Source: Synaphobranchus kaupii (taxonomy: Eukaryota; Chordata; Actinopteri; Anguilliformes; Synaphobranchidae). From it: a stretch of 64,000 bases of DNA. The stretch is from the NCBI GenBank assembly GCA_029718625.1, contig CM056378.1, positions 65,867,027 through 65,931,026 on the forward strand. The letters are read 5' to 3'. The notes below the pieces were generated by a model. That model worked only from the letters and a program-made list of their open reading frames with translations. It made no database searches and was not told the origin of the DNA. Positions 3,062-57,105 of this stretch are shown in pieces (the stretch's first letter is position 1; every line of letters starts with the position of its first letter). Both the position numbers and the translations under genes were made by a program.

Positions 3062-3679
3062 TTCAAGATTACCAAATCCGGATTACCAGTGCTCTAAATG
3101 GGACTACATATCACAATGTAGGCTACTAGCTATGTAAAGAACAACAGGTAGAATAGCCAGCGTGGGGTCACTAAGTGTTTTTACTTGAAATAGCACAATA
3201 AAACAATACAAACATCCCCTTCCATTTTCTATTTCTTTTAAACCCCTGATCTGACCCACAACAAATAAATAAAAACAAACAAATATACATTATTCACAAA
3301 TACATTGTGGATATTTTAAACATGTGTTTTAAATCATAAAATGGCTAAATGTCCAATAGTTAACTACTACATGATAGAAATGTTGTATTATTTGACCAAT
3401 TTTAAAGTTTTATTACATTTTGTTCCTGAAATCCACCCTGAATCCACCCTTCTGCTGGGATCAGGATAATCCTGATTTTTTGGATAAAAGGTATCCCAAT
3501 CCTACTAAAAAGTTTTGAACAACACATACTGAAGGTTTGATCCAGATCAAAACCAAGACTGGATTACGTGATCTAATCCAATTTCAGAATCCTTTTTTTC
3601 TTTTGAACAACCCATTTTCAAGATTTGATCCAATCCGATAGCCGAAATCCAATCAGAATACTTCTGAACAACTGGGCCC

Positions 3680-16406: not shown

Positions 16407-16752
16407 AAGTCACATTACGAACTCAACGTGAAAATCAACCCACAGAATCAAGTCACATAACAGATTCAATGTGCAATTCAACCCTCAGAATTAAGTCACA
16501 TAACGGTCTCAACATGCAAATCAACTACAGAATTAAAACATATAACGGACTCAATGTGCAAATAAACCACAGGAGTAAGTCACATAGCAGACTCAACATG
16601 CAAACTAACCATAGGAGTAAGTCACATTATGGACTCAATGTGTACATCAACCACAGCATTAAGTCACATAACAGGCTCAACGTGAAAATTAACCTCAGAA
16701 TTAAGTCACATAATGGTCTCAACATGCAAATCAACTACAGAATTGAGACATA
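16407..16752 (+). repeat. 42-bp minisatellite array, forward segment
   Basis: About eight units of 42 bp with the core 'cacataacggtctcaacatg' 'caaatcaactacagaattaa' 'gt'. Because 42 is a multiple of three, the array stays open as 14-residue repeats of the type SHNGLNMQINYRIK. The array is cut at 16752 by the intact Tc1 element and resumes for about 20 bp at 18313. Further segments lie at 23385-23583 (forward) and 23595-24541 (reverse). Confidence 0.85.
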
Positions 16753-23384: not shown

Positions 23385-23583
23385 ATTATGGACTCAATGT
23401 GTAAATCAACCACAGCATTAAGTCACATAACAGGCTCAACATGCAAATCAACCACAGAATTAAGACATATAACGGACTCAATGTGCAAATCAACCATAGG
23501 AGTAAGTCACCTAACAGACTCAACGTGCAAATCAACCCACAGAATTAAGTCACAGAACAGACCCAATGTGCAAAACCAATTGC
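23385..23583 (+). repeat. 42-bp minisatellite, forward segment 2
   Basis: Roughly five units in the same orientation as 16407-16752 resume directly at the right border of the foldback element. The orientation flips between 23583 and 23595. Confidence 0.82.
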
Positions 23584-23594
23584 ACTTCCAATTC

Positions 23595-24541
23595 TGCAGT
23601 TGATGTGCACATTCAGTCCGTTATGTGACTTAATTTTGTGGTTGATTTAAATGATGAGTCCATAATGTGACTTACTTCTATGGTTGATTTGCACGTTGAG
23701 ACCGTTATGTGACTTAATCCTGTAGTTTATTTGCATGTTGAGTCTGTTAGGTGACTTACTCCTGTGGTTGATTTGCACATTGAGTCCATTATGTGACTTA
23801 AAGGGGAACGCCAGGTTATTTCTTAAACTTCTATATCGATTTTATATGTTTAATGTGATTCTAGAAGCTTACCGCACTAGAACTGTGCGTCCCGGTTCCC
23901 TTGGTTTCCAGCTTGTTTCCAGATGCGCTGCATTGTGCTGATCTACATCAGTGGTGGTTAATTTCAGCTGCAAGTCTACTGTATACTGGAAGGTTCAAAA
24001 TTGATCAGATTCGCTGATGGATAAAAGTCTTCAAGAGGGTCTTCAAAAGGCTTCAAGAATCACATTAAACATATAAAATCAATATAGAAGTTTAATAAAT
24101 AACCCGGCGTTGCCCTTTAATGCTGTGGTTGATTTACATGTTGAGTCCAAAATGTGACTTACTCCCATGGTTTATTTGCATGTTAAGTCCATTATCTTAA
24201 TTCTGTGGTTGATTTTCACGTTGAGTCCATCATGTGACTTCCTCCCGTGGTTTATTTGCACGTTAAGTCCATTATATGCCTTAATTCTGTGGTTTATTTG
24301 CATGTTGAGACTGTTATGTGACTTAATTCTGTGGTTAATTTTCACATTGAGTCTGTTATGGGACTTACTCCGGTGGGTTGATTTGCATGTTGAATCCATA
24401 ATGTGACTTGCTCCTGTGGTTGATTTGCACATTGTGACTCAATTCTGTGGGTTGATTTGCACATTGAGTCCATAATGTGACTTATTTCTGTGGTTGATTT
24501 TCACGTTCAGTCCATCATGTAACTTACTCCTGTGGTTGATT
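23595..24541 (-). repeat. 42-bp minisatellite, reverse segment
   Basis: Units of the form 'ttgatttgcacattgagtcc' 'attatgtgacttactcctgt' run in reverse orientation, about five before and ten after a Kolobok-like MITE at 23802-24116. Together with the forward units they make a head-to-head array. The minus-strand frame is open for 86 residues (24172-24432) as 14-residue repeats. Confidence 0.82.
23802..24116 (+). mobile_element. Kolobok-like MITE
   Basis: A 315-bp element with ends AGGGGAACGCCAGGTTATTT and the inverse of AGGGCAACGCCGGGTTATTT. The inverted similarity extends about 65 bp ('cttctatatcgattttatat' / 'atataaaatcaatatagaag'). It is flanked by TTAA at 23798-23801 and 24117-24120, and the minisatellite unit reads continuously when it is removed. 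TTAA plus AGGG termini fit Kolobok; no coding capacity. Confidence 0.85.
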
Positions 24542-24544
24542 TGT

Positions 24545-35459: not shown

Positions 35460-36248
35460 CCATGTTCCGTACAGTAACGATGTTCTGTACAGTTGACCTT
35501 CTCCCGCCATTCATTGAATAAATACTTCCCAGTTATGAATCACATTTATATCTGTGTCATCATCATTTCGTCCTCTTTCATCACTGACCAAGAGATAGTG
35601 CACCCCGCCACCCGGTCCAGTGAGATACCCGTAAGTATGCTAGCTGCACCCGCTCATGCTAACTCGATGTTCGAGGGGGAAGCTAACGTCCCGACTGCAG
35701 CACGGGTGGGGAGACGATTAGAGCAGCGAAAATGTACATTTCGATTTAATTTATGCTTCCCACAGTAACGTTACTAACGTTACAGTCTGCATGAAATCAT
35801 TATTATGTTATCACAAGTTGAATAAATGCTTTGAAATGGGCATTTTTTTTACCGTCAATTCAGCACAATGACCGCTTGGCCCCAGTCTCACATCAAGGCA
35901 GCAACTCTGTCAACAGACGCTGTTTGCACATCATCGGTCACATGACAAAATGATTGTTTATAATGATTTTATTTATATTCACACACATTTATTCACACAC
36001 ACTAACGTTATATAACTTTAACAACTTGATTCAAATAAAAAATAATTCACATAACATTAACATTAACTAATTAACATAACATTACTGATTAAACGGAACA
36101 CTAACATTACACTGAACACACCACTGAACTGAACTTAACATTAACATAATTAACAATTACTAATCTAACGTAAATCAAATATAAGTTATTTTTTTTAAAG
36201 GAAAGTAAAGGAAAGTAAAGAAAAGCCAGGGAAAGAAAAGAAAGAAAG

Positions 36249-38201
36249 ATGCCAAGAAAGAACAAGCAATATACAAAGGAAGTGTTAGGAGTAGCAGTAG
36301 AGGAGGTGAAGGCAGGAGCTAGTCTGAGGAAAACTGCACAAAAATACGGTATCCCTCACACCACCCTGGCAGACTACAGGAAAAATATATATTCCCACAA
36401 CCCCCACCCCAATTCAGCCCTGACCCCTGCAGAGGAGGAAGCCCTCCTGTCCTTCATCTTCTGGATGGCGGACCACGGTTTCCCGATTACCAGATCCCTG
36501 GTGAAGGTCCTGGCCATCGGGATAATCCGGGAGAGTGGGAGAAGCAACACCACCAGGGTCAACCTTGAAAAGGGGCCTAGTGACATGTGGTGGTCATGGT
36601 TTAAGGCCCGCCATCCAGCACTCACCATGAGGACGGCAGATTCCCTGGACAGGGCCAGGGTCCACGGCGCTACCCCCGAAGCCATTGAGGGCTTCTTCTC
36701 CATCTACGAAGCCCTCTACATCCAGCACGATTTAAAGAACAAACCCCACCTGATCTTTAATTGTGATGAGACTGGCTTCGGGGACAAGCCGGGGTCCCGC
36801 GAGAAGGTCTTGTGCCAGACCGGGAGAAAGCACATTTATCAGCAGCAGCAGACCACACGGCAACACATCACGGTCCACTGCTGCGTGAGTGCAGCTGGTG
36901 AAAGCATGCCCCCTTTCATAATCTTCCCTGGCTGCCTCCCAAGCACAGCATACAGGCTGGATGGTCCCCCCAATGCCCTCTATGGCATCCAGCAGAAGGA
37001 CTATATGGATGGGGAGCTGTTCTTAAAATGGCTCCACCACTTCATTAGGTATGCACCTGAGGAGAGACCCATCATCCTCATTATGGATCAGTGATTGATT
37101 GTCTTATGCAGGGACAACAAGATAGAAATTCTCTGCCTACCTGCCCACACAACTCACGTCCTCCAGCCCCTTGACGTCGCTGTGTTCAATCCACTGAAGA
37201 CCGCCTTCTCAAAGATGGCATCCAGGATGGGTCTGGTGCGGGGTGACATAGTAGTGGGGAAAAAGCAGTTTTCCCCCCTCCTGAAACACTGCTGTCACCG
37301 CCGAGAACGTGAAGGCTGGGTTCCGCAAGGCAGGGATCTTCCCTCTGTCGAGGGAGGCTGTGGACACAACCCAGGTAACGTTAATACAATAATTCTTCCT
37401 CTAAGTTACTTGCATTTCTTTTAAAAGTGTGCTAATGAGTTTTAAATATGCTTTACTTACTAGGTGGTGAGAATTCTCCCATCAGCAGAGGGAACTGATG
37501 CCACTCCAGCCACTTCCTCACCCACGCCATCCAGCACTCCCACCACTCCTCCCGCCATCGCCACGCCATCCAGCACTCCCACCACTGCCTCAGCCATGCC
37601 ATCCAGTGCTTCCACCACCAGCGCCTCAGCTAGTGCTCCACTTACTGGGACAAATATATCTGCCACTCCCTCCGCCACTCCAGCACCTTGCCCCACCTGC
37701 AAGTGGGTGACTCCGAAAAACTACCTGGTGGCAGCTGGGATAATTCCGGAGTCACTCGCCAACGTCCTCATGAGCCCTGCCTTGGAGAAGCAGGACAAGG
37801 TGAGGCGTCGCCTTCCTCTGCCAGCCCGTGTAATAACGAGCGACGAATATTTCAACCTGGTGGCACAGAAGGAAGCGGAGGAGAAAGAGAATGAAGACAA
37901 GATGAAGAAACGGAAGGAGGACATGGCAAAAAAGAAGGAGGAAAGAAGACAAGCCCAGGAGGAAAGAAGACAAGTCCAGCAGGCAAAAAGGCAGAGAAAG
38001 CAGGCCCCACCTCCGGCTGAACAAGATGGAGAACACTGCGCCATCTGTAGGTGTCTTGTCCCACCTGGCTCTGCAGATGACACCGTAGATGAATGGGTGC
38101 AGTGTGAGATATGCCAGTTGTGGTTCCACCTGCAGTGTGCAGAGGTGATGGAAGTGCCTGACACCGAGTGGCTCTGCACGAAATGTTGTCTGCATCCATA
38201 A
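36249..38201 (+). pseudogene. pogo-type transposase with C-terminal PHD finger
   Basis: Exon 1 opens MPRKNKQYTKEVLGVAVEEV with a Psq-type helix-turn-helix (~residues 10-45, 'SLRKTAQKYGIPHTTLADYR') and a CENP-B-like region. The DDE_1 domain follows: Asp173 (FNCDETGF), Asp280 (ILIMDQ), then a stop at 37092-37094 where a short piece seems missing. The same frame resumes with 'LCLPAHTTHVLQPLDVAVF' (third Asp), shifts near 37285 and ends 'AGIFPLSREAVDTTQ' at a donor (37374|GTAACG). An 89-bp intron ends at 37463. Exon 2 is in phase: Ser/Thr/Pro-rich linker, 'TPKNYLVAAGIIPESLA', a Lys/Glu coiled coil, and a Cys4-His-Cys3 PHD finger (CAIC, CEIC, HLQC, CTKC). PHD fingers commonly read histone tails; a targeting role is inference. 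Confidence 0.85.
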
Positions 38202-38992: not shown

Positions 38993-39158
38993 GAGCTACT
39001 ATACGACACTGAAGTTGGCTCCCGATTCGCAGCTCCCGGTTCGGAATTGCCGGTCCACCTTAAATCGGTCGCGGAAAGCGATTGTACGCTTTCACGGTCA
39101 TTCTTCCGCTTTTTTTCTCCGCTAAATCTAATTGGCTCAACATTCTGATAGCCTAGTA

Positions 39159-39190
<32 letters not shown>

Positions 39191-39280
39191 CCAGGTACTG
39201 TTATACATCTGAAATTATTTGGATACTGCACCGTTTTGAAATAATCACACTCCAAATGTTATGAAACAATACAATAATAT
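38993..39280 (+). repeat. left end repeat of the satellite block
   Basis: About 290 bp from 'gagctactatacgacactga' to 'caatattgg-like' sequence, where the first satellite unit begins. It includes an (AT)n tract at about 39159-39184. The inverse copy at 55600-56472 carries a Tc1 fragment at the corresponding AT tract; this copy is uninterrupted. Confidence 0.82.
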
Positions 39281-42200
39281 TGGCATATGAGAGAAGAGGT
39301 CCTCCACTATATGTGAACTGAGTTGGGTGAAATATTACTGTAGCATTTTCAAATAATCCCTCTTCAAACTTCCTATGTCCACCAATGTAAATCTACTGAA
39401 AAAAGGTGATTATTTAAATAGGATTTTCTTGCCAATTTTAGAACGTCTCAAACTTTTGACACTTGGGTATGAGAGAAGAGGTCCTCCACCACCTCTGACT
39501 CGAGTTGGGTGAACTATTACTGTGGCATTTTCAAATAATCCCTCTTCAAACCTTCTATGTAATCCAATGTAAATTTACTGAAAAAGGTGAAACTTTAAAT
39601 AGGATTTTCTTGCCAATTTTAGAACGTGTCAAACTTTTGACATGTGGGTATGAGAGAAGAGGTGCTCCTCTACATCTGACCCGAGTTGGGTGGAATATTA
39701 CTGTAGCATTTTCAAATAATCCCTCTTCAAACTTCCTATGTCCACCAATGTGAATCTACTGAAAAAGGTGATTATTTAAATAGGATTTTCTTGCCAATTT
39801 TAGAACATCTCAAACGTTTGACATGTTGGTATGAGAGAAGAGGTCCTCCACTATATCTGACCTGAGTTGGGTGAAATATTACTGTGGCATTTTCAAATAA
39901 TCCCTCTTCAAACTTTCTATGTAATCCAATGTAAATCTACTGAAAAAGGTGAAACTTTAAATAGGATTTTCTTGCCAATTTTAGAACGTCTCAAAGTTTT
40001 GACACTTGGGTATGAGAGAAGAGGTCCTCCACTATATCTGACCTGAGTTGGGTGAAATATTACTGTGGCATTTTCAAATAATCCCTCTTCAAACTTTCTA
40101 TGTAATCCAATGTAAATCTACTGAAAAAGGTGAAACTTTAAATAGGATTTTCTTGCCAAGTTTAGAACGTCTCAAAGTTTTGACACTTGGGTATGAGAGA
40201 AGAGGCCCTCCCCTATATCTGACCTGAATTGGGTGAAATATTACTGTAGCATTTTCAAATAATCCCTCTTCAAACTTTCTATGTGATCCAATGCAAATCT
40301 ACTGAAAAAGGTGAAGTTTTAAATAGGATTTTCTTGCCAATTTTAGAAACGTCTCAAACTTCTGACACTTGGCTATGAGAGAAGAGGTCCTCCACCACCT
40401 CTGACTCGAGTTGGGTGAACTATTACTGCGGCATTTTCAAATAATCCCTCTTCAAACCTTCTATGTAATCCAATGTAAATTTACTGAAAAAGGTGAAACT
40501 TTAAATAGGATTTTCTTGCCAATTTTAGAACGTGTCAAACTTTTGACATGTGGGTATGAGAGAAGAGGTGCTCCTCTACATCTGACCCGAGTTGGGTTGA
40601 ATATTACTGTAGCATTTTCAAATAATCCCTCTTCAAACTTCCTATGTCCACCAATGTAAATCTACTGAAAAAGGTGATTATTTAAATAGGATTTTCTTGC
40701 CAATTTTAGAACATCTCAAACGTTTGACATGTTGGAATGAGAGAAGAGGTCCTCCACTATATCTGACCTGAGTTGAGTGAAATATTACTGTGGCATTTTC
40801 AAATAATCCCTCTTCAAACTTTCTATGTAATCCAATGTAAATCTACTGAAAAAGGTGATTATTTAAATAGGAATTTCTTGCCAATTGTAGAACGTCTCAA
40901 ACTTTTGACATGTGGGTATGAGAGAAGAGATCCTCCACTATATCTCACCTGAGTTGGGTGAAATATTACTGTAGCATTTTCAAATAATCCCACTCCAAAC
41001 TTTCTATGTAATCCAATGTAAATTTACTGAAAAAGGTGAAATTTGAAATAGGATTTTCTTGCCAATTTTAGAACGTCTCAAACCTTTGACATGTGGGTAT
41101 GAGACAAGAGGTCCTCCACTATATCTGACCTGAGTTGGGTGAAATATTACTGTAGCATTTTCAAATAATCCCTCTTCAAACTTCCTATGTCCACCAATGT
41201 AAATCTACTGAAAAAGGTGATTATTTAAATAGGACTTTCTTGCCAATTTTAGAATGTCTCAAAGATTTAACATGTTTGTATGAGAGAAGAGCTCCTCCAA
41301 TATATCTGATCTGAGTTGGGTGAAATATTACTGTGGCATTTTCAAGTAATCCCTCTTCAAACTTTCTATGTAATCCAATGTAAATCTACTGAAAAAGGTG
41401 ATTATTTGAATAGGATTTTCTTGCCAATTTTAGAACGTCTCAAACTTTGACATGTGTGTATGAGAGAAGAGGTCCTCCACTATATCTGACCTGAGTTGGG
41501 TGAAATATTACTGTAACATTTTCAAATAATCCCTCTTCAAACGTCCTATGTCCACCAATGTAAATCTACTGAAAAAGGTGAAATTTTAAATAGGATTTTC
41601 TTGCCAATTTAAGAACGTCTCAAACTTTTGACATGTGGGTATGAGAGAAGAGGTCCTCCACTATATCTGACCTGAGTTGGGTGAAAGATTACTGTAGCAT
41701 TTTCAAATAATCCATCTTCAAACTTCCTATGTCCACCAATGTAAATCTACTGAAAAAGGTGATTATTTAAATAGGAATTTCTTGCCAATTTTAGAACGTC
41801 TCAAAGATTTGTCATGTGTGTTTGAGAGAAGATGTCCTCACCTATATCTGACCTGAGTTGGGTGAAAGATTACTGTAGCATTTTCAAATAATCCCTCTTC
41901 AAACTTCCTATGTCCACCAATGTAAATCTACTGAAAAAGGTGATAATTTAAATAGGATTTTCTTGCCAATTTTAGAACGTCTCAAACTTTGACAAGTGTG
42001 TATGAGAGAAGAGGTCCTCCACTATATCTGAATCGAGTTGGGTGAAATATTACTGTGGCATTTTCAAATAATCCCTCTTCAAACTTTCTATGTAATCCAA
42101 TGTAAATTTACTGAAAAAGTTGAAATTTTAAATAGGATTTTCTTGCCAATTTTAAAACGTCTCAAACTTTTGACATGTGGGTATGAGAGAAGAGGTCCTC

Positions 42201-45200
42201 CATTATATCTGACCTGAGTTGGGTGAAGGATTACTGTAGCATTTTCAAATAATCCCTCTTCAAACTTCCTATGTCCACCAATGTAAATCTACTGAAAAAG
42301 GTGATAATTTAAATAGGATTTTCTTGCCAATTTTAGAACGTCTCAAACTTTGACAAATGTGTATGAGAGAAGAGGTCCTCCACTATATCTGACCTGAGTT
42401 GGGTGAAATATTACTGTAATATTTTCAAATAATCCCTCTTCAAACTTCCTATGTCCACCAATGTAAATCTACTGAAAAAGGTGAAATTTTAAATAGGATT
42501 TTCTTGCCAATTTTAGAACGTCTCAAACTTTTGACAAGTTGGTATGAGAGAAGAGGTCCTCCTCTACATCTCACCTGAGGTGGGTGAAATATTACCGTAG
42601 CATTTTCAAATAATCCCACTCCAAACTTTCTATGTAAACCAATGTAAATACTGAAAAAGGTGATTATTTAACCCTTTCCAGCCTAAGCGAATATTGGGTC
42701 AACATTCTATTCCATTTTATTTCTTAATGTGCGTTGCAAAAATGTTTGTAGTGTGATCATATGACATCAGATACCTAAACTTGATATACCATTGTAAACA
42801 GGATAACTGGGGCTTTCAATTGATATAAAAAATTATAGGATTACTTGATGGCAATATCATCAATTATGGAAATACATTTACCAACTAAATTCATAAAACA
42901 TTCTAAATGGCTATTTTCTAATGAGAAACCTACTATTTTACCCATTTCATGTTCAAGATAGGGGAAAACTTAGAGTGTATGATATCTTCACCATTGTGGG
43001 AGTCATATAGAATAGGAATCAGAATAGATTTATCTTCTACTGCTCAAAAGTTATAACCACTTCAGTGATGGGTAAGAAAAGGCTCAAATAAACGCTTTAG
43101 AATGTTAGGTTCATTGAAAATATGACATGTGTATGCAAAACTGTTTGTGGTGTGATCATATTATGTTACACCCCTAAAGATAATATACCATTTTAAACAG
43201 GATAACTGGAGCTTTCCATTTATATACAATAATATGCTTACTTTAACACAATATCATCAATTATATCAATTATTAAAACAAATCACAAAATAAATAATAA
43301 TAAAAAAAACTTTCTAAATGGCTATTCTCCATGAGAAACCTAGGTTTTTAAACATTTCATGTTCAAGATCGAGGGAGACAAACTGTGTGGTATCTTCACT
43401 ATTTTGTAAGTGATATAGAGTAGAAATCAGAACAGATTTATCATTTACTGCTCAAAAGTTATAACATCTTAGTGATGTATGGGAAAAGGCAAAAAAAAAA
43501 TTTTATTAGAATGTTAGGTTCATTGACATTTCACATTACCACTTATCCATACTCCTAATGGGTCACTGTTGAGAATCTGTTGATATAATGCAAAATTGAA
43601 AGACACATACACTGAAATATACAATTTATGTGTTCAATGAAACACACACTTTATTTAAAAAAAGATGTATAACATAGTGAATGGATGAACTAAGTAAATG
43701 CATAACATTGCAAAACAAATAAAAACAAGATACAACCCATGGCAAATATCAGTTTAGATACCTGTAAAATTAATGCATTGGATTTATTTACAGGAAAATC
43801 ATTAATGTATTAGTACAGATACAGCAGACAAATCTATGGTCAAGCATAAATACCTTCAATATATTCAAAAATCAAGAAGATAACAGTAAGTGCATGCATG
43901 CCCTGATGGTCCTCCGTGTCGTGATCTGCAATGACCCTCGGCACCTCCTTCTCTTCAGGGACTGTATCAGATGGCTAAATGTCCATCCTTTGCTGCAATA
44001 CATAAATATGTAATCATTTACCATTTCATTAATCCATAACATATCATATAAAACCATTTCTGAGTAATTAAAGGGCTGTACACTTGCAATAACATCATCT
44101 TACAGCAAACGCTTTATGCTTATGTCAGGAATAGCTAAAATAGCTATTCTGGACACAAGCATAATGTCCATCCATCGCTGTAATAGATAAATATATTATC
44201 AGTTGCCATTTCATTAATCCATAACATATAAAACCATTTCTGAGTCATTAAAGGGGTGTATAGCGAGAATTACATTTTACAGAAAACACTATGCTCCAGA
44301 ATAACGTTAGCCTAGATAAAAAGCACAACAATAACACAATGTTAGACTACTTAGCATAATGTCCATTCATATAAGATATTGTTTTGAATGAACAGACCAA
44401 AATCATCAGTGACATTGGCTCAACTGAATGATGTCTTCTTGTCATATTTGTCTAAACAGGCTAATCTTGCTCCAACAAAAACGTGAGTCAGAAAATAAAA
44501 CGTGAAGCTGACGTTACGTTAGGAAATGTTTGCTGTTTAGTTCTCTAATTTACTCCATTCATTTTCGACAGGACTGATCAACCACAACCTTCAAATTTAT
44601 ACATAACGTTATGTTAAAAAACTAGCTAGTTAGTACTTGCTATTGATAAGACTAATAGTTGAGTATAACATTTATAAAGCTAGCAAGACAGACAGCAGAG
44701 CTAACGTTTCAAATTAGGAAAACAAAAACGCAGAAAAGAAAATGGCTTTTCGCGCGGTTTAGGATGATAGCTCACTGTTAGACTAACGTTATTTGTTTTA
44801 GCTTTAGTTCACTACTATTTAGTTATCAAAGTCTACACTAAGATACGGAAAATATTCACATCTAACGTTATCACTTCACTTATTCATTGTATGACAGACT
44901 TTTTCACAATTTCATCTCAAAACGAGCTGGGGTAACAACAACACAGTGGCATCATTTGAAGCTGGAGCCGAACGTTAGCTACCTTAGCGAATTTCAAGTG
45001 AAAATATGAGAAAGTCTGCGGTACAAAAACAGGATTTTATTCAAAATAAAATCGTTTCTGAAGTAATATCTATGGTTAATTATTATCTTAAATATTTCTT
45101 ACCTCAGGGGGTTTACTGGCTTTCCCTCAGTCGCAGTAAAGTCTTCAGACGATAGTGTTCAGTCCGAGGTGGTCCGCTCCGCCCGCGGTGAAGCAAATGG

Positions 45201-48200
45201 AGATTTACGAGGTTGACGTGCGGTTTTATTTAGCGGTCTACAAATAAATCCCCGCCCACTAAGCTCATGAACCAATTATATGCAATTGTAGCTTATTTTG
45301 TCATCTGTAACTAGCAGTTTTCAAAAAGAAAATCAGTGATTGGACGGCAGAGCTATTATACGTCAAACCATCAGCACAATTGTGCTGAAATTAGAACGGT
45401 CCGGCTTTAAAGGGTTAAATAGGATTTTCTTGCCAATTTTAGAACGACTCAAACTTTTGACAAGTGGGTATGAGAGAAGAGGGTCCTCCATTATATCTGA
45501 CCTGAGTTGGGTGAAATATTACTATAGCATTTTCAAATAATCCCTCTTCAAACGTTCTATGTAATCCAATGTAAATCTACTGAAAAAAGGTGAAATTTTG
45601 AATAGGATTTTCTTGCCAATTTTAGAACGTGTCAAACTTTTGACACTTTGGTATGAGAGAAGAGGTCCTCCATTATATCTGACCTGAGTTGGGTGAAATA
45701 TTACTATAGCATTTTCAAATAATCCCTCTTCAAACGTTCTATGTAATCCAATGTAAATCTACTGAAAAAGGTGAAATTTTGAATAGGATTTTCTTGCCAA
45801 TTTTAGAACGTCTCAAACTTTTGACACTTTGGTATGAGAGAAGAGGTCCTCCATTATATCTGACCTGAGTTGGGTGAAATATTACTATAGCATTTTCAAA
45901 TAATCCCTCTTCAAACGTTCTATGTAATCCAATGTAAATCTACTGAAAAAGGTGAAATTTTGAATAGGATTTTCTTGCCAATTTTAGAACGTCTCAAACT
46001 TTTGACACTTTGGTATGAGAGAAGAGGTCCTCCACCACCTCTAAATCGAGTTGGGTGAAATATTACTGTGGCATTTTCAAATAATCCCTCTTCAAACTTT
46101 CTATGTAATCCAATGTAAATTTACTGAAAAAGTTGAAATTTTAAATAGGATTTTCTTGCCAATTTTAAAATGTCTCAAACTTTTGACATGTGGCTATGAG
46201 AGAAGAGGTCCTCCATTATATCTGACCTGAGTTGGGTGAAATATTACTGTAGCATTTTCAAATAAACCCTCTTCAAACTTTCTATGTAATCCAATGTAAA
46301 TTTACTGAAAAAAGTGACATTTGAAATAGGATTTTCTTGCCAATTTTAGAACGTGTCAAACTTTTGACATGTTGGTATGAGAGAAGAGGTCCTCCACTAT
46401 ATCTCACCTGAGTTGGGTGAAATATTACTGTAGCATTTTCAAATAATCCCACTCCAAACTTTCTATGTAATCCAATGTAAATTTACTGAAAAAGGTGATT
46501 ATTTAAATAAGATTTTCTTGCCAATTTTAGAACGTCTCAAACTTTTGACAGTTTCGTATGAGAGAAGAGGTCCTCCACCACCTATGAGTCGAGTTGGGTG
46601 AAATATTACTGTAGCATTTTCAAATAATCCCACTCCAAACTTTCTATGTAATCCAATGTAAATCTACTGAAAAAGGTGATTATTTAAATAGGAATTTCTT
46701 GCCAACTTTAGAACGACTCAAACTTTTGACAAGTGGGTATGAGAGAAGAGGTCCTCCATTATATCTGACCTGAGTTGGGTGAAATATTACTGTAGCATTT
46801 TCAAATAATCCCTCTTCAAACGTTCTATGTAATCCAATGTAAATCTACTGAAAAAGGTGAAATTTTGAATAGGATTTTCTTGCCAATTTTAGAACGTCTC
46901 AAACTTTTGACACTTTGGTATGAGAGAAGAGGTCCTCCACCACCTCTGAATCGAGTTGGGTGAAATATTACTGTGGCATTTTCAAATAATCCCTCTTCAA
47001 ACTTTCTATGTAATCCAATGTAAATTTACTGAAAAAATTGACATTTTGAATAGGATTTTCTTGCCAATTTTAGAACGTCTCAAACTTTTGACACTTTGCT
47101 ATGAGATAAGAGGTACTCCTCTACATCTGACCCGAGTTGGGGTGAAATATTACTGTAGCATTTTCAAATAATCCCTCTTCAAACTTTCTATGCAATCCAA
47201 TGTAAATCTACTGAAAAAGGTGACATTTTAAATAGGATTTTCTTGCCAATTTTTAGAACGTCTCAAACTTTTGTCAAGTTGGTATGGGAGAAGAGGTCTT
47301 CCACTATATCTGACCTGGGTTGGGTGAAATATTACTGTAGCATTTTCAAATAATCCCACTCCAAACTTTCTATGTAATCCAATGTAAATCTACTGAAAAA
47401 GGTGATTATTTAAATAGGAATTTCTTGCCAATTTTAGAAAGTCTCAAACTTTTGACAAGTGGGTATGAGAGAAGAGGTCCTCCATTATATCTGACCTGAG
47501 ATGGGTGAAATATTACTGTAGCATTTCCAAATAATCCCTCTTCAAACGTTCTATGTAATCCAATGTAAATCTACTGAAAAAGGTGATATTTTGAATAGGA
47601 TTTTCTTGCCAATTTTAGAACGTCTCAAACTTTTGACACTTTGCTATGAGATAAGAGGTACTCCTCTACATCTGACCCGAGTTGGGTGAAATATTACTGT
47701 AGCATTTTCAAATAATCCCTCTTCAAACTTTCTATGCAATCCAATGTAAATCTACTGAAAAAAGGTGATTATTTAAATAGGATTTTCTTGCCAATTTTAG
47801 AACGTCTCAAACTTTTGTCAAGTTGGTATGAGAGAAGAGTTCTTCCACTATATCTGACCTGGGTTGGGTGAAATATTAGTGTAGCATTTTCAAATAATCC
47901 CACTCCAAACTTTCTATGTAAACCAATGTAAATCTACTGAAAAAGGTGATTATTTAAATAGGATTTTCTTGCCAATTTTAGAACATCTCAAACTTTTGAC
48001 AAGTGGGTATAAGAGAAGACGTCCTCCATTATATCTCACCTCAGTTGGGTGAAATATTACTGTAGCATTTCCAAATAATCCCTCTTCAAACTTTCTATGC
48101 AATCCAATGTAAATCTACTGAAAAAGGTGACATTTTAAATAGGATTTTCTTGCCAATTTTAGAACGTCTCAAACTTTTGACACTTTGCTATGAGAGAAGA

Positions 48201-49578
48201 GGTCCTGCTCTACATCTGACCCGAGTTGGGTGAAATATTACTGTAGCATTTTCAAATAATCCCTCTTCAAACTTTCTATGCAATCCAATGTAAATCTACT
48301 GAAAAAAGGTGATTATTTAAATAGGATTTTCTTGCCAATTTTAGAACTTCTCAAACTTTTGACAAGTGGGTATAAGAGAAGAGGTCCTCCATTATATCTC
48401 ACCTCAGTTGGGTGAAATATTACTGTAGCATTTCCAAATAATCCCTCTTCAAACTTTCTATGCAATCCAATGTAAATCTACTGAAAAAGGTGACATTTTA
48501 AATAGGATTTTCTTGCCAATTTTAGAACGTCTCAAACTTTTGACACTTTGCTATGAGATAAGAGGTCCTCCTCTACATCTGACCCGAGTTGGGTGAAATA
48601 TTACTGTAGCATTTTCAAATAATCCCTCTTCAAACTTTCTATGCAATCCAATGTAAATCTACTGAAAAAGGTGACATTTTAAATAGGATTTTCTTGCCAA
48701 TTTAAAAACTTCTCAAACTTTTGACAAGTGATTATGAGAGAAGAGGTACTCCTCTACATCTGACCCGAGTTGGGTGAAATATTACTCTAGCATTTTCAAA
48801 TAATCCCACTCCAAATTTTCTATGTAATCCAATGTAAATCTACTGAAAAAGGTGATTATTTAAATAGGAATTTCTTACCAATTTTAGAACGTGTCAAACT
48901 TTTGACATGTGTGTATGAGAGAAGAGTCCCTCCTCTACATCTGACCTGAGTTGGGTGAAATATTACTGTAGAATTTTCAAATAATCCCTCTTCAAACTTT
49001 CTATGCAATCCGATGTAAATCTACTGAAAAAGGTGAAATTTTAAATAGGATTTTCTTGCGAATTTTAGAATGTCTCAAATTTTTGACACTTGGCTATCAG
49101 ACAAGAGGTCCTCCAACACCTCTGACTCGAGGTGGGTGAAATATTACTGTAGCATTTTCAAATAATCCCACTCTAAAACCTTCTATGTAATCCAATGTAA
49201 ATCTACTGAAAAAAGTGAAATTTTAAATAGGATTTTCTTGCCAATTTAAGAACGTTTGAAAATTTTGATGTGTGGGTATGAGAGGAGTTCCTCCTCTACA
49301 TCTGACCCGAGTTGGGTGAAATATTACTGTAGCATTTTAAAATAATCCGTCTTCAAACTTTCTATGCAATCCAATGTAAATCTACTGAAAAAGGTGACAT
49401 TTTAAATAGGATTTTCTTACCAATTTTGGAACGTCTAAAACTTTTGACAGTTGGTTATGAGAGCAGAGGTCCTCCACCACCTCTGACTCGAGGTGGGTGA
49501 AATATTACTGTAGCATTTTCAAATAATCCCACTCCAAACTTTCTATGTAATCCAATGTAAATCTACTGAAAAAGGTGA
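39281..49578 (+). repeat. 181-bp satellite array, forward arm
   Basis: Units of about 181 bp recur, each with 'gagttgggtgaaatattact', 'gcattttcaaataatccc', 'ctactgaaaaaggtga', 'aggattttcttgccaatttt' and 'tatgagagaagaggtcctcc'. Start points at 39321, 39503, 39684 and 39865 give the period. After subtracting the 2743-bp insertion (42672-45414), about 42 units remain. Blocks repeat at higher order: 39505-39753 is almost identical to 40411-40659, 906 bp apart (five units). Open frames across units change phase because 181 is not a multiple of three, so they are not genes. Confidence 0.95.
42672..45414. mobile_element. piggyBac-like non-autonomous element
   Basis: The ends are CCCTTTCCAGCC and the inverse of CCCTTTAAAGCC, flanked by TTAA at 42668-42671 and 45415-45418; removing it rejoins a satellite unit ('gattatttaaatagg'). 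The 2743-bp body has two internal direct duplications: about 42740-43090 versus 43130-43500 ('aaacaggataactgg') and about 43975-44060 versus 44160-44255 ('catttcattaatccataaca'). No transposase-like ORF. CCCT termini with TTAA favour piggyBac over Kolobok. Confidence 0.82.
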
Positions 49579-49784
49579 CATTTCCCACAGGCATGGTAGC
49601 TCACTCCACTCGGGGCGTAGCTACCTCCTGGGCCTTACTACGTGGCGCCACAATTGCTGACATTTGCGCAGCAGCGGGCTGGGCCTTATCGCTCACTTTC
49701 ACCAGGTTTTATCACCTGGACGTAGCGTCATCGGCATCAGTTGCCTCCTCTGTCCTCAGGGCAGCGGAGCAACCTTGTATGTAA
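49579..49784 (+). pseudogene. C-terminal fragment of a DIRS-type tyrosine recombinase
   Basis: The frame reads 'VAHSTRGVATSWALLRGATI' 'ADICAAAGWALSLTFTRFYH' LDV, which matches the C-terminal end of tyrosine recombinases of DIRS-like retrotransposons. The HxxR pair (HSTR) and the nucleophile Tyr (RFYHLDV) are visible. The N-terminal half with the first catalytic Arg is absent, as the satellite begins immediately upstream (49578). It ends at a stop after AEQPCM. DIRS elements use this enzyme to integrate circular DNA; here it can only be a remnant. It sits exactly between the two satellite arms. Confidence 0.82.
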
Positions 49785-50169
49785 TTTTGTGATGATTTAG
49801 GGTTTCTATCACTCGGTGGTTATTTTCCACGTTTCCCAATTGAGCTTGCTCTTCTGGTAAGAACAGCAGCCAATAGTGCATTTTGTTTTTTACAGGATTT
49901 GCACTAATGCAATGACCTGCGGTCCTGGTACCCCACTACATACCGCGCCCAATGTTATTTGGTATTCTGTGACCAATACCGTGGTCAGCCGGGGAACCTT
50001 GCACCCTCAGGATGGCAAGTGTCCTCAAGTCGGCAAAAGAGGCCGGGCGGCGTACAAGCGCCATATTTATAGCGTGACGTGGTTCCGCCCGTAGTGGTGG
50101 TTCATTTGCTATTCAGTTCCCCAGCAGCTCTTCCTCTCGGCGAGGATGCCCCATACTGTGGCGTGTTGA
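49785..50169 (+). other. rest of the axis: probable DIRS-like 3' region
   Basis: Unique, moderately GC-rich sequence between the recombinase stop and the first reverse satellite unit. 'cggcgaggatgccccatact' and 'gtggcgtgttgat' near 50138-50170 resemble the conserved 3' region of fish DIRS elements. The 72-residue ORF (49876-50094) has no recognised domain. Confidence 0.45.
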
Positions 50170-51512
50170 TCGATATGAAATAGAACCTCCTTCGTCTCTC
50201 ATATCCAAGTGTCAAAAGTTTGAGACCTTCTAAAATTGGAAAGAAATTCCTATTCAAAATTTCACCTCTTTCAGTAGATTTACAAAGGATTACATAGAAA
50301 GTTTAGAGTGGGATTATTTGAAAATGCTACAGTAATAATTCACCCAACTCAGGTCAGATATAGTGGAGGACCGCTTCTCTCATACCCACATGTCAAAAGT
50401 TTGAGAAGTTCTAAAATTGGCACGAAATTCCTATTTAAATAATCACCTTTTTCAGTAGATTGGATTACATAGAAAGTTTGAAGAGGGATTATTTGAAAAT
50501 GCTACAGTAATATTTCACCCAACTCGGGTCAGATGTAGAGGAGGACCTCTTCGCTCATACCCACATGTCAAAAGTTTGAGATGTTCTAAAATTGGCAAGG
50601 AAATCCTATCTAAAATGTCACCTTTTTCAATAGATTTACATTGGATTACAAAGAAAGTTTGAAGAGGGATTATTTGAAAATGCTAGAGTAATATTTCACC
50701 CAACTCTAGTCACATATAGGGAAGGACCTCTTCTCTCATAACCATGTGTCAAACGTTTGAGACGTTCTAAAATTGGCACAAAATTCCTATTTAAATAATC
50801 ACCTTTTTCAGTAGATTTACATTGGTGGACATAGGACGTTTGAAGAGGGATTATTTTAAAATGCTACAGTAATATTTCACCCAACTCGAGTCAGAGGTGG
50901 TGGAGGACCTCTTCTCTCATACCCATGTGTCAAAAGTTTGAGACGTTCTAAAATTGGCAAGAAAATTCTATTTAAAATGTCACCTTTTTCAGTAGATTTA
51001 CATTGGATTACATAGAAAGTTTGAAGAGGGATTATTTGAAAATGCTACAGTAATATTTCACCTAATTTAGGTCAGATATAATGGAGGACCTCTTCTCTCA
51101 TACCCATATGTCAAAGGTTTGAGACATTCTAAAATTGGCACAAAATTCCTATTTAAATAATCACCTTTTTCAGTAGATTTACATTGGTGGACATAGGGGG
51201 CTCTATTTTCAAACCGGCGCAAACCAGCGCAAGGGGACGGTATAGTCAAACACAAGCTTGTTGACAGCATCAACGTCTTAAAACTGGCGCTATGGCGTTT
51301 CTCAGCAATACCGCTAGGATCAACAAATTCTCAACATAACATCCTTTCGCTTGCGCTGCAGTGGGATGGGTGGCGCTGTCTGGGGCGTGTTCTAAAATAC
51401 TTTCGGCTCAGTGACAATTTGAACCAACGAAAACCCATTGCGTTATGATCAGCTGGAACCACCTCTTAGCGGCAACGCAATAGACTGGCAATTTGGCAAC
51501 TTATTAGTCATG

Positions 51513-52495
51513 GGGCTCTATTTTAATAAACCAAACGCAATGGTGAACACAAGAGTAAGCGCTTGGCGGTATCGCTCTGAGGGTGTGTCGGCGAGAAATT
51601 TGGTAATTTCATGACGGCAATCTTGTCGCATCTGATGGCGGTATTGCTAAAAGGCTGGGTTTAAATGTCCAAGGTGTGTCTCTATGGTAGCCAATCAAAT
51701 TGTTGTTCTCATGCTTTAAAAAAAGCCAGTTGGAACGCAATCGCTCCATGCAATTTCATAATGAGCAACCCAAACGCACTGGACCGTCAACGACAAGAGC
51801 GATTTTCCGCACAGAAATCAGACATACTTGCAACAGAAGTACAGGCTAGGACTAGTAATTTATGGATCACAATCCACACCACCTCGTCTCCCAGAAGTTC
51901 GGAAGGCACGGGAGGAGGTGGCGAATGCATTAATTAGCCTACATTAGGTGATGTAGGCATAATTATGATTCAAATGGTAGGCTTATGATTCAACTGTGTC
52001 AATGTGTAATTTATATATTATAGGCTATTGGCCTACATGATCGCAAGTTTCTTGTAAGCTGTCCTGTTTTATTCTAGTAGTTTAAATTAAAATTAATTAA
52101 TTAATAATAATTATAGGCTATTTGTTCATTAAATGGAAGTGTAATGTTGGCATCGCCTATAGACACTACATAGAACTACATGACTAATAAGTTGCCAAAT
52201 TGCCAGAGTCTATTGCGTTGCCGCTAAGAGGTGGTTCCAGCTGATCATAATGCAATGGGTTTTCGTTGGTTCAAATTGTCACTGAGCCGAAAGTATTTTA
52301 GAACACGCCCCAGACAGCGCCACCCATCCCACTGCAGCGCAAGCGAAATGATGTTATGTTGAGAATTTGTTGATCCTAGCGGTATTGCTGAGAAACGCCA
52401 TAACGCCAGTTTTAAGACGTTGATGCTGTCAACAAGCTTGCATTTGACTATACCGTCCCCTTGCGCTGGTTTGCGCCGGTTTGAAAATAGAGCCC
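51513..52495 (+). mobile_element. Harbinger element copy 3, inside copy 2
   Basis: A 983-bp copy in inverted orientation. It starts GGGCTCTATTTTAATAAACC and ends with the inverse of GGGCTCTATTTTCAAACC, flanked by ATG at 51510-51512 and 52496-52498. Its Myb-like frame (51665-51937) matches the other copies up to 'EVQART' and then shifts frame by a small indel. Confidence 0.92.
51665..51937 (+). pseudogene. Myb/SANT-like exon, frameshifted
   Basis: Identical in type to 15513-15797 through 'RFSAQKSDILATEVQART', with E-to-K in SAQES. A small indel then replaces the 'VVIYGSQSTPPRLPE' region by an unrelated frame (SNLWITIHTTSS). It cannot encode the domain. Confidence 0.65.
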
Positions 52496-52725
52496 ATGTA
52501 GTTCTATGTAGTGTCTATAGGTGATGCCAACATTACACTTCCATTTAATTAACAAATAGCCTATAATTATTATTAATTAATTTTAATTTAAACTACTAGA
52601 ATAAAACAGGACAGCTTACAAGAAACTTGCGATCATGTAGGCCAATATCCTATAATAGATAAATTACACATTGACACAGTTGAATCATAAGCCTACCATT
52701 TGAATCATAATTATGCCTACATCAC

Positions 52726-53010
52726 CTAATGTAGGCTAATTAATGCATTCGCCACCTCCTCCCGTGCCTTCCGAACTTCTGGGAGACGAGGTGGTGTGGA
52801 TTGTGATCCATAAATTACTACAGTCCTAGCCTGTACTTCTGTTGCAAGTATGTCTGATTCCTGTGCGGAAAATCGCTCTTGTCGTTGACGGTCCAGTGCG
52901 TTTGGGTTGCTCATTATGAAATAGCATGGAGCGATTGCATTCCAACTGGCTTTTTTTAAAGCATGAGAACAACAATTTGATTGGCTACCATAGAGACACA
53001 CCTTGGACAT
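52726..53010 (-). CDS. Myb/SANT-like exon, open copy
   Basis: A 94-residue frame nearly identical to 15513-15797, with one visible change, APCNF to APCYF. It keeps 'RTVVIYGSQSTPPRLPEVRK' and 'REEVANALISLH'. It is part of the DNA-binding second protein of Harbinger elements, ending before the domain is complete. It belongs to the outer element copy 2. Confidence 0.6.
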   Translation of the reverse strand: MSKVCLYGSQSNCCSHALKKASWNAIAPCYFIMSNPNALDRQRQERFSAQESDILATEVQARTVVIYGSQSTPPRLPEVRKAREEVANALISLH

Positions 53011-55753
53011 TTAAACCCAGCCTTTTAGCAATACCGCCATCAGATGCGCCAAGATTGCCGTCATGAAATTACCAAATTTCTCGCTGACACGCCCTCAGAG
53101 CGATACCGCCAAGCGCTTACTCTTGTGTTCACCATTGCGTTTGGTTTATTAAAATAGAGCCCAGGAAGTTTGAAGAGGGATTATTTGAAAATGCTACCGT
53201 AATATTTCACCCAACTCAGGTCAGATATAGTGGAGGACCTCTTCACTCATAGCCACATGTCAAAAGTTTGAGACGGTCTAAAATTGGCAAGAAAATCCTA
53301 TTTTAAATTTCACCTTTTTCAGTAAATTTACATTGGATTACATAGAAAGTTTGGAGTGGGATTATTTGAAAATGCTACAGTAATATTTCACCCCACTCGA
53401 GTCAGAGGTGGTGGAGGACCTCTTCTCTCATACCCATGTGTCAAAAGTTTGAGACGTTCTAAAATTGGCAAGAAAATTCAATTTAAAATTTCACCTTTTT
53501 CAGTAGATTTACATTGGATTACATAGAAAGTTTGAAGAGGGATTATTTGAAAATGCTACAGTAATATTTCACCCAACTCGGGTCAGATGTAGAGGAGGAC
53601 CTCTTCGCTCATACCCACATGTCAAAAGTTTGAGACGTTCTACAATTGGCAAGAAAATCCTATTTAAAATGTCACCTTTTTCAGTAGATTTACATTGGTG
53701 GACATAGAAAGTTTGAAGAGGGATTATTTGAAAATGCTACAGTAATATTTCACCCAACTCAGGTCAGATATAGTGGAGGACCTCTTCTCTCATATCCACA
53801 TGTCAAAAGTCTGAGACGTTCTAAAATTGGCAAGAAAATCCTATTTAAAATTTCACCTTTTTCAGTAAATTTAAATTGGATTACATAGAAAGTTTGAAGA
53901 GGGATTATTTCAAAATGCTACAGTAATGTTTCACCCAACTCGAGTCAGAGGTGGTGGAGGACCTCTTCTCTCATACCCATGTGTCAAAGGTTTGAAACGT
54001 TCTAAAATTGGCAAGAAAATCCTATTTAAAATGTCACCTTTTTCAGTAGATGTACATTGGATTACAAAGAAAGTTTGAAGAGGGATTATTTGAAAATGCT
54101 ACCGTAATATTTCACCCAACTCTAGTCACATATAGGGAAGGACCTCTTCTCTCATAACCAAGTATCAAACGTTTGAGACGTTCTAAAATTGGCACAAAAT
54201 TCCTATTTAAATAATCACCTTTTTCAGTAGATTTACATTGGTGGACATAGGAAGTTTGAAGAGGGATTATTTGAAAATGCTACAGTAATATTTCACCCAA
54301 CTCAGGTCAGATATAGTGGAGGACCTCTTCTCTCATATCCACATGTCAAAAATTTGAGACGTTCTAAAATTGGCAAGAAAATCCTATTTAAAATTTCACC
54401 TTTTTCAGTAAATTTAAATTGGATTACATAGAAAGTTTGAAGAGGGATTATTTCAAAATGCTACAGTAATGTTTCACCCAACTCGAGTCAGAGGTGGTGG
54501 AGGACCTCTTCTCTCATACCCATGTGTCAAAGGTTTGAAACGTTCTAAAATTGGCAAGAAGATCCTATTTAAAATGTCACCTTTTTCAGTAGATGTACAT
54601 TGGATTACAAAGAAAGTTTGAAGAGGGATTATTTGAAAATGCTACCGTAATATTTCACCCAACTCTAGTCACATATAGGGAAGGACCTCTTCTCTCATAA
54701 CCAAGTATCAAACGTTTGAGACGTTCTAAAATTGGCACAAAATTCCTATTTAAATAATCACCTTTTTCAGTAGATTTACATTGGTGGACATAGGAAGTTT
54801 GAAGAGGGATTATTTGAAAATGCTACAGTAATATTTCACCCAACTCAGGTGAGATATAGTGGAGGACCTCTTCTCTCATAGCCACATGTCAAAAGTTTGA
54901 GACATTCTAAAATTGGCAAGAAAATCCTATTTAAAATTTAACCTTTTTCAGTAAATTTAAATTGGATTACATAGAAAGTTTGGAGAGGGATTATTTGAAA
55001 ATGCCACAGTAATATTTCACCCAACTCGAATCAGATATAGTGGAGGACCTCTTCTCTCATACCCAAGTGTCAAAAGTTTGACATGTTCTAAAATTGGCAA
55101 GAAAATCCTATTTAAAATGTCACCTTTTTCAGTAGATTTACATTGGATTACATAGAAAGTTTGAAGAGGGATTATTTGAAAATGCCACAGTAATATTTCA
55201 CCCAACTCGAATCAGATATAGTGGAGGACCTCTTCTCTCATACCCAAGTGTCAAAAGTTTGACATGTTCTAAAATTGGCAAGAAAATCCTATTTAAAATG
55301 TCACCTTTTTCAGTAGATTTACATTGGATTACATAGAAAGTTTGAAGAGGGATTATTTGAAAATGCCACAGTAATATTTCACCCAACTCGAATCAGATAT
55401 AGTGGAGGACCTCTTCTCTCATACCCAAGTGTCAAAAGTTTGACATGTTCTAAAATTGGCAAGAAAATCCTATTTAAAATGTCACCTTTTTCAGTAGATT
55501 TACATTGGATTACATAGAAAGTTTGAAGAGGGATTATTTGAAAATTCTACAGTAATATTTCACCCAACTTAGGTCAGAGGTACTGTCATACCCTAGTGTC
55601 AAAGGTTTCATACATTGTAATTTTGGATATTATCATTTTTTGTAATATGCCAATATTATTGTATTGTTTCATAACGTTTGGAGTGCGATTATTTCAAAAC
55701 GGTGCAGTATCTAAATAATTTCAGATGTATAACAGTACCTGGTATTTTATATA

Positions 55754-56286
55754 CACTGCCTGGCCAAAAAAAAAGTCGCCGTTGCACCCGTGATGCATAG
55801 TGCCCACTGTACAAACCTCTGGAGGTAGTGTTAAGATCTGGGGTTGCTTCAGTTGGTCAGGTCTAGGCTCAGCAAAGTTATGCAGCAATAAAATGAAGTC
55901 AGCTGAGTACCTGAATGTACTGAATGACCAGGTTATCCCATCAATGGGCATATTCCAGGAAGACAATGCCAAGATTCATCAGGCTCAAATTGTGAAAGAG
56001 CGGTTCAGGGAGCATGAGGAATCATTTTCACACATGAATTAGCCACCAGAGTCCTGACCTTAACCCCATTGGGGTGTGCTGGAGAAGACGTTACGGAGTG
56101 GTTCGACTCTCCCGTCATCAATACAAGATCTCGGCCAAAAATTAATGCAACTCTGGATGGAAATAAATGTTGTGACGTTGCATAAGGTTGTCGAAACAAT
56201 GCCACGACGAATGCGCGCCATAATGAAGGCTATAGGCGGTCCAACGAAATATTAGCGTGTGTGACTTTTTTTTTGGCCAGGCAGTG
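55754..56286 (+). mobile_element. internally deleted Tc1-like element
   Basis: The ends are CACTGCCTGGCCAAAAAAAA and its inverse, with TA at 55752-55753 and 56287-56288. At 533 bp it retains both termini but only the C-terminal half of the transposase. It lies in the AT tract of the right end repeat; the left end repeat has no insertion there. Confidence 0.88.
55800..56255 (+). pseudogene. Tc1-like transposase C-terminal half, dead
   Basis: The frame starts in the Gly-rich region '[16 protein letters not shown]' and passes '[20 protein letters not shown]' with the second catalytic Asp. It meets a stop after SHMN, then reads 'PPESPDLNPIGVCW', where the third catalytic Glu is Gly. A frameshift follows, and the C-terminus 'MPRRMRAIMKAIGGPTKY' ends at 56255. 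The DNA-binding half is deleted. Confidence 0.8.
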
Positions 56287-56472
56287 TATATATATACAGT
56301 ATATATATATAACTAGGCTATCAGAATGTTCAGCCAATAGATTTAGCGGAGAAAAAAGCGGAAGGATGACACTGAAAGCATACAATCGCTTTTCGCGACC
56401 GATTTAAGGTGGACCGGCAATTCCGAATCGGGAGCTGCGAATCGGGAGCCAACTTCAGCGTCGTAGCTACTA

Positions 56473-57105
56473 TGAAGTATGAATGCCCCAAACCAGAGTC
56501 AAAACTGACAAACACCACAACAGTTTGCAACAGATGCAAACATTTGTGTAGTAGAGGGCCTTCCAACAGTCTTGTTTTTATCATGGTTCAAGCCAATAAT
56601 CTTAATTTCTAATAATTTCTATCATTAAGCTCTCCACACCATCTATTGGGAGGGAATATAATATTAATAGTTCCCACTTCCAAGTGTGTTAGGGAGGTAT
56701 ATGTGTGTAGAAAGATAGTGAACAACCTGTCCATCAGAAAGAGGATGAGTAAAGATAACCAGAATTTACGTTTAGCTGTGCTAGTTTGCTAATATTAATG
56801 CATTCACGTTATCTGCCATGTGGTGAAAAACAACCTCTTTCTGCATAATCGCTTTTTAGATGCAATTTAAATTGTTGGCCTATTTTTTCATTACCTTTTC
56901 TTTATCTCTGAAAAAAGCCAAGAAGACTCATTTGTTATTTACTTTATGGAATATTATTGCACCCCCAATAACAATTGAAAAGTACAACTAAAGTTCCGCT
57001 AAAGTACATTAAAATCAGCTCCTGGGCAGAGCAACACAAACCTTTTACGGACCAAAAATATTTGGGGCTATGCTCAAAACATTCGGGGCTCGAGCCCTGA
57101 ATGAT
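56473..57105. other. no recognised gene
   Basis: AT-rich sequence between the satellite block and a hAT-like end. No domain-bearing ORF or paired termini were recognised. Confidence 0.4.

What the first reader, a model, noticed from the sequence alone, without database searches (positions are those of the whole stretch)
38993..56472. Giant inverted satellite block resembling a foldback transposon
About 42 forward and 19 reverse 181-bp units meet at a unique axis and are bounded by matching inverted end repeats of ~290 bp. In foldback elements (Drosophila FB, Galileo) tandem-repeat arms lie between the termini in this way. At 17.5 kb this would be very large and, as far as I know, not a standard description for a fish genome. 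It could mean satellite DNA is being spread as transposon arms.
Basis: partly seen in the sequence, partly recalled or inferred. Interest (0 to 1): 0.9.

Follow-up and report, generated by a model that had tools for sequence, protein, structure and literature searches.

The report
Transposon family with satellite-DNA arms
The window holds one old copy of a dispersed jumping-gene family whose two arms are long runs of a 181-base satellite repeat, so here satellite DNA is being carried to new places in a genome as part of a transposon.

Summary
In detail: 42 forward and 19 reverse 181-bp units between inverted ends. The element is 39003-56464, flanked by a perfect 9-bp duplication (AGCTACTAT), and carries three later nested insertions. 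In the host genome a 20-mer of the end occurs 408 times. Of the 100 ends listed, 35 neighbouring pairs face inward 3.4-17.5 kb apart and none face outward. Of 15 insertions with both ends in hand, 10 have perfect 9-bp duplications of differing sequence. One paralogous empty site was found. Of 37 loci examined, 34 contain the satellite units. The 'unique axis' is a remnant of a 3.4-kb core shared by the family, apparently a dead DIRS-type retrotransposon fragment. Two duplicates of one insertion have about 10+4 and 2+1 units, so arm length changes in place. Best reading: a non-autonomous foldback transposon, probably moved by a Mutator-like transposase. That transposase was not found, and 'fish' was not tested. 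It works like Tetris and Rehavkus; it is a new variant of that kind.

The parts
38994..39002 (+). left target site duplication AGCTACTAT
   Evidence: 9-bp length settled by other copies
39003..39155 (+). left terminal inverted repeat, outer part
39156..39185 (+). AT run between outer and inner end, variable in length between copies
39186..39285 (+). left terminal inverted repeat, inner part; contains a diverged piece of the 181-bp unit
39286..42671 (+). forward arm, first part (181-bp units)
42672..45414 (.). nested insertion with piggyBac-like ends (CCCTTT...AAAGGG), TTAA duplicated
45415..49582 (+). forward arm, second part
49583..50204 (+). remnant of the family core (core positions 2803-3420), with the C-terminal end of a tyrosine-recombinase-like frame
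50205..51197 (-). reverse arm, first part
51198..53162 (.). nested inverted-repeat element (GGGCTCTATTTT ends), AGG duplicated
53163..55587 (-). reverse arm, second part
55588..55753 (-). right terminal inverted repeat, inner part and boundary unit
55754..56286 (.). nested Tc1-like element, TA duplicated
56287..56464 (-). right terminal inverted repeat, AT run and outer part
56465..56473 (+). right target site duplication AGCTACTAT

Best explanation
The block is one old, damaged copy of a family of roughly 200 foldback DNA transposons. A standard copy reads: 9-bp target duplication; terminal inverted repeat (outer 153 bp, AT run, inner part of about 100 bp); an arm of 181-bp tandem units; a core of about 3.4 kb; the same arm inverted; the inverted terminal repeat. 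Shown: the whole block inserts as a unit; unit and inner end share ancestry; arm length changes in place by gain or loss of blocks of units. Inferred: the family is non-autonomous and is cut and pasted by a transposase encoded elsewhere, most likely of the Mutator group (about 0.55 for that step alone); the units serve as extra transposase binding sites and multiply by unequal exchange or replication slippage; the core is a passenger, a dead DIRS-type retrotransposon fragment acquired before the family spread.
For: Inverted ends with 9-bp direct repeats: 10 of 15 insertions perfect, 1 agreeing in the 6 bases available, 1 with 8 of 9 and 1 with 7 of 9. 393 and 408 matches to two patterns from the end, reversed controls 0. 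35 inward pairs and 0 outward among 100 listed ends. Paralogous empty site of L015 inside L021. Arms plus the same core in dispersed loci. Outer ends identical over 150 bp in 7 of 11 copies. Unit and inner end related. Same insertion with different arm lengths, L057 and L058. Block-wise repeats of units.
Against: No copy read encodes a transposase that fits; the only transposase frames seen inside copies are nested Tc1 types. Two of 15 insertions (L019, L056) have no target duplication. MULE-type frames in the genome show no shared ends in the parts read. 174 of 397 units have their nearest relative in another element, so homogenisation within an element is partial, and in L016_017 and L024 units are no more alike within than between elements.
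Confidence: 0.85

Rival explanations
1. An ordinary satellite array that was locally inverted or mis-assembled, with coincidental inverted flanks.
For: From the window alone, inverted satellite blocks could arise this way; the window copy is old and its arms are not collinear.
Against: Hundreds of dispersed ends, inward pairing, different 9-bp duplications and an empty site.
Confidence: 0.02
2. A transposon captured a pre-existing free satellite and amplified it inside its arms, rather than the satellite arising from the transposon's own end. Free arrays may remain elsewhere.
For: The similarity of unit and inner end is limited (51 bp at about 76%). The 9444 matches of a unit 38-mer are more than about 200 copies with the sampled mean of 22 near-full units (397 in 18 loci) would give, so long arms or free arrays exist that were not read.
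Against: At the right end the diverged unit runs in register from the end repeat into the array. The 13 unit clusters among the first 100 exact matches, all on contig 1, each lie beside a terminal repeat.
Confidence: 0.25
3. The transposase belongs to another superfamily than Mutator (for example P/Galileo-like or an undescribed DDE group).
For: No transposase was found; tandem-repeat arms occur in more than one superfamily (Galileo is a P element; PMC3573991, passages).
Against: The 9-bp length is unambiguous in the other copies, Galileo makes 7 bp, and 8-11 bp is the MULE range (PMC6446971, passages).
Confidence: 0.4
4. The DIRS-like core is not a passenger but the element's own coding part, the ends and arms having grown around a tyrosine-recombinase element.
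For: Nearly every full copy carries the core at the same place, and it has its own inverted ends of about 90% identity over 87 bp.
Against: Frames are broken in the seven cores translated (longest 269 aa), and tyrosine recombinases are not known to make 9-bp target duplications (recalled).
Confidence: 0.07

Closest known systems
Tetris / TIR-220 of Drosophila virilis (PMC4079207; passages incl. most of the abstract)
   Same: Foldback element, apparently non-autonomous; terminal repeat with outer part, arm of tandem units (about 220 bp) and inner domain; unit shares 37 bp at about 80% with the outer end; 8-10 bp target duplications; units also in kb-size arrays.
   Different: Other host and sequence; three structurally complete copies in that assembly; no retrotransposon-derived core is mentioned in the passages seen.
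Rehavkus, e.g. Rehavkus-1_TC with TCsat23 (PMC6446971 passages; PMC10218199 passages)
   Same: 9-bp target duplications, terminal repeats of 26-400 bp, a satellite of similar unit size (164 bp) as short arrays in both inverted ends of a 9.5-kb element.
   Different: Rehavkus encodes its own transposase with a PHD finger and is reported from arthropods and an annelid; [quoted passage not shown]
Tm1 of root-knot nematodes (PMC3169594; passages)
   Same: Composite inverted ends with a variable, unequal number of tandem repeats; mostly 9-bp target duplications; coding and non-coding members.
   Different: 14-bp repeats, asymmetric terminal motifs, nematode host, transposase members known.
Galileo (PMC3573991 passages; PMC3688188 abstract and outline)
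   Same: Long ends with internal tandem repeats that expand and contract independently; in Galileo these contain transposase binding sites.
   Different: P superfamily, 7-bp duplications, ends of at most about 1.26 kb with two or three repeats.
miDNA4 and Xstir MITEs of Xenopus (review PMC12628747; passages)
   Same: Vertebrate transposons that carry a tandem array of variable length linked to a satellite.
   Different: Small MITEs with an internal array, not two inverted arms; miDNA4 is Tc1/mariner.
Drosophila FB elements (recalled)
   Different: Not tested here; sequence and repeat sizes differ as far as recalled.

Membership tests
Foldback transposons (structural class) | Long inverted ends that contain tandem repeats of variable number | tested here: met
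   copy-to-copy and arm-to-arm variation
Foldback transposons (structural class) | Insertion as a unit with target site duplication | tested here: met
   10 of 15 insertions perfect 9 bp, 2 of 15 none; empty site
Mutator (MULE) | 8-11 bp target duplications and long terminal repeats | tested here: met
   range from PMC6446971 passages
Mutator (MULE) | MULE transposase in the element or in a partner with the same ends | tested here: not met
   no such frame of 150 aa or more in the parts read of 18 copies; the genome has 18 PF10551 matches, but no shared ends in the parts read. Only part of the copies was read, so it is not filed as a MULE.
Rehavkus | 9-bp duplication, end repeats of 26-400 bp, satellite next to the ends | tested here: met
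   features
Rehavkus | Transposase with PHD finger | tested here: not met
   not present in the copies read; no Rehavkus sequence was available to search with
P superfamily / Galileo | 7-bp target duplication | tested here: not met
   9 bp
P superfamily / Galileo | THAP-domain P transposase | not tested
   no family search made for it
DIRS retrotransposons (core only) | Tyrosine recombinase with H..R and catalytic Y | tested here: met
   motif conserved in query and five relatives; Pfam shows no recombinase match; the name DIRS is recalled
DIRS retrotransposons (core only) | Reverse transcriptase | tested here: inconclusive
   RVT_1 at E=0.0031, below Pfam's cut-off
DIRS retrotransposons (core only) | Whole element ends like a DIRS element, without target duplication | tested here: not met
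   the whole element has 9-bp duplications; the DIRS feature is recalled

The most novel reading that the evidence does not exclude
In this genome the 181-bp satellite exists essentially only as the arms of a foldback transposon. It arose from the transposon's own end, is delivered to new sites by transposition, and grows and shrinks after landing, giving elements from under 2 kb to ends 20 kb apart.
Probability: 0.35. Interest if true: 0.82.

Novelty: new variant of a known kind. Interest (0 to 1): 0.72.

Why it matters
How satellite DNA gets dispersed is an open question, and foldback elements as the vehicle have been argued mainly from Drosophila (Tetris) and a beetle (Rehavkus). Here one assembled genome offers hundreds of ends, target duplications, an empty site and a pair of duplicates of one insertion that differ in arm length. 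That makes the cycle 'jump, then expand the array' directly testable. Long inverted repeats of this size are also likely places for chromosome rearrangement (inference). Nine literature searches (open-licence PMC only; listings with titles and openings of abstracts) listed no paper that by its title or abstract opening describes a foldback element with satellite arms in a fish.

Tried and rejected
Mirror-image descent of the window's two arms was tested and not supported: runs of 2 to 8 units in one arm do not match runs in the other in order better than shuffles do (p 0.12 to 0.71). A 7-bp target duplication, possible from the window alone, was dropped after reading other copies. Ends that first seemed to lack satellite (L045, L052) were ends split by other DNA; units follow further in. 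Two unit clusters without a listed end (C1:57760761, C1:71261903) were read and do hold the terminal repeat from about its position 30 on. MULE-type frames were considered as the source of the transposase; no convincing similarity to these ends was found (best: 17 bp, E=0.008). Viral contigs has no match to a 27-mer of the end. Rfam and tRNA scans of the window gave nothing. Never answered: the axis as a DNA query, a 130-mer unit search meant to sample other contigs, and a RAG1 family search meant to test whether the host is a jawed vertebrate. L005, fetched, was not examined for arms and is not in the count of 37; L001-L004 and L006-L008 are ends of copies that were examined.

Full report
What is there. 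The window contains 42 forward and 19 reverse copies of a 181-bp unit between inverted ends. The inverted homology ends sharply at 39003 and 56464, and AGCTACTAT stands on both sides. Three later insertions lie inside: one with piggyBac-like ends at 42672-45414, a palindromic element at 51198-53162 with a relative at 14987-15949, and a Tc1-like element at 55754-56286. Without them the element is about 12.2 kb.

A family, not a singleton. The host assembly is held: 1.503 Gb in 94 contigs, with the window at C3:65867027-65931026. A 27-mer of the end (up to 2 mismatches) matches 393 places and a 20-mer of the extreme end 408; the reversed controls match none. Of the 100 places listed, 35 neighbouring pairs within 30 kb point inward (span 3.4-17.5 kb, median 8.5 kb), none outward, and one pair the same way; the window copy is the longest of these 35. 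Ends 20.5 kb apart occur at C1:110132152 and C1:110152661, but the interior there was not read.

Transposition signature. Both ends were in hand for 16 loci, which are 15 insertions because L057 and L058 share one. Ten have perfect 9-bp direct repeats of differing sequence; L026 agrees in the 6 bases available; L025 has 8 of 9; L024 7 of 9; L019 and L056 have none. The flanks of L015, joined with one copy of its duplication, align to L021:7668-8088 (389 of 421 columns, with a 4-bp gap beside the duplication), a paralogous empty site. The outer 150 bp of the two ends are identical in 7 of 11 copies; the window copy (140 of 152) is the most diverged.

Anatomy of a standard copy. Outer end of 153 bp; an AT-rich run of variable length; an inner end of about 100 bp; an arm; a core of about 3.4 kb; and the same in reverse. 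Tc1-type transposase frames lie between outer end and arm in L018 and L023, and a Tc1-like element sits at the AT run in the window. The inner end is a diverged unit: 51 bp align at both ends, and 0 of 1000 shuffles reach the score; at the right end a further stretch continues in register (1 of 1000 shuffles). The outer 153 bp show no such similarity. Of 37 loci examined (window and 17 loci, 17), 34 contain units. The exceptions are L044, a palindromic mini-copy; L043, no unit in 5.7 kb; and L050, read for 0.7 kb only.

The arms. Units are somewhat more alike within an element than between elements (mean difference 0.050 in the same arm, 0.055 in the other arm of the same element, 0.064 between elements; 397 near-full units in 18 loci). 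223 of 397 have their nearest relative in the same element, so 174 do not, and L016_017 and L024 do not follow the trend. Identical units recur within arms (86 pairs in L011_012) and, in L013_014, between arms (28 pairs). Units repeat with a period of 5 in one arm of L026 and of 3 in the window's reverse arm, as expected from local block duplication. L057 and L058, 15 kb apart, share 20 bp of flank on each side, the 9-bp duplication and a similarly deleted core, but have about 10+4 and 2+1 units. Their shared parts are 94-96% identical, so the change is not necessarily recent, and only 20 bp of flank were read. The window's arms show no collinear correspondence.

Satellite and transposon. A 38-mer of the unit (up to 2 mismatches) has 9444 matches, control 0. 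The 100 exact matches listed, all on contig 1, form 13 clusters; 11 lie within 3.4 kb of a listed end, while 1.1% of random points lie within 20 kb of one. The other two were read and hold the terminal repeat. This samples one contig. The total exceeds what about 200 copies of the sampled size would hold, so longer arms or free arrays elsewhere are not excluded.

The core. The window's axis is core 2803-3420 at 94.9% identity. Cores of nine copies are 97.9-99.5% identical to one another, and a 1-kb piece is 100% identical on two contigs (40 of 549 candidates scored). The longest frame in seven cores is 269 aa. A 135-aa piece has 11 relatives; the five aligned with it share HSTRG and a downstream tyrosine, the pattern of DIRS-type tyrosine recombinases (the family name is recalled). 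Pfam gives no recombinase match and only a sub-threshold reverse transcriptase match. The window and, among others, L009, L010, L024 and L026 have deleted or rearranged cores. I read the core as a passenger, although its inverted ends (about 90% over 87 bp) could also be an inner domain of the element's own ends.

Mechanism. Shown: block insertion with 9-bp duplication, different arm lengths at one insertion, and a satellite sharing ancestry with the end. Inferred: cut-and-paste by a transposase supplied in trans. The Mutator group is the best guess, because 8-11 bp duplications and long ends are its marks (PMC6446971, passages), and Tetris was placed there on such grounds (PMC4079207, passages). 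The genome contains 18 matches to the MULE domain PF10551, four of them in frames of 777-779 aa, but the parts read do not carry these ends, so membership is not claimed. In Galileo tandem units contain transposase binding sites (PMC3688188, abstract), which would explain why arms persist; that is untested here.

Comparison and verdict. It works like Tetris, Rehavkus, Tm1 and Galileo. It differs in number of copies, in arms of up to about 50 units (L011_012) and in the retrotransposon-derived core. I rate it a new variant of a known kind.

Noticed in passing
L034-L037 (G000 C6:12522365, C7:33580863, C4:36162341, C5:36452730): MULE-domain proteins in open frames of 777-779 aa; the C4 and C5 places are 99.97% identical over at least 9.3 kb. 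PMC6446971 (passages) doubted that vertebrates have MULEs, so this matters if the host is a vertebrate.
   Followed up: partly
L029-L032: A second, decayed MULE-like family whose ends contain short tandem repeats in inverted orientation, that is, foldback-like ends beside a MULE domain.
   Followed up: partly
16407-16744 and 23390-24543: 42-bp tandem repeats in both orientations (forward at 16407-16744 and 23390-23574, reverse at 23599-23801 and 24123-24543), perhaps another, smaller element with tandem-repeat arms; no clear ends were seen.
   Followed up: partly
36219-38201: Just left of the element: frames with HTH_psq and DDE_1 domains (291 aa) and with a PHD finger (245 aa), perhaps one pogo-type transposon gene with a PHD finger.
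   Followed up: partly
16924-17970: A 348-aa open Tc1-type transposase frame (HTH_SB, HTH_Tnp_Tc3_2, DDE_3).
   Followed up: partly
14987-15949 and 51198-53162: Two places with the same inverted-repeat element family at about 97-99% identity; the copy inside the array looks like two elements nested or joined head to head.
   Followed up: no
C1:58364712-58383628: Unit matches spread over about 11 kb of forward arm plus a reverse arm beside an end at C1:58383609, suggesting a copy with very long arms; only its last 0.7 kb was read.
   Followed up: no
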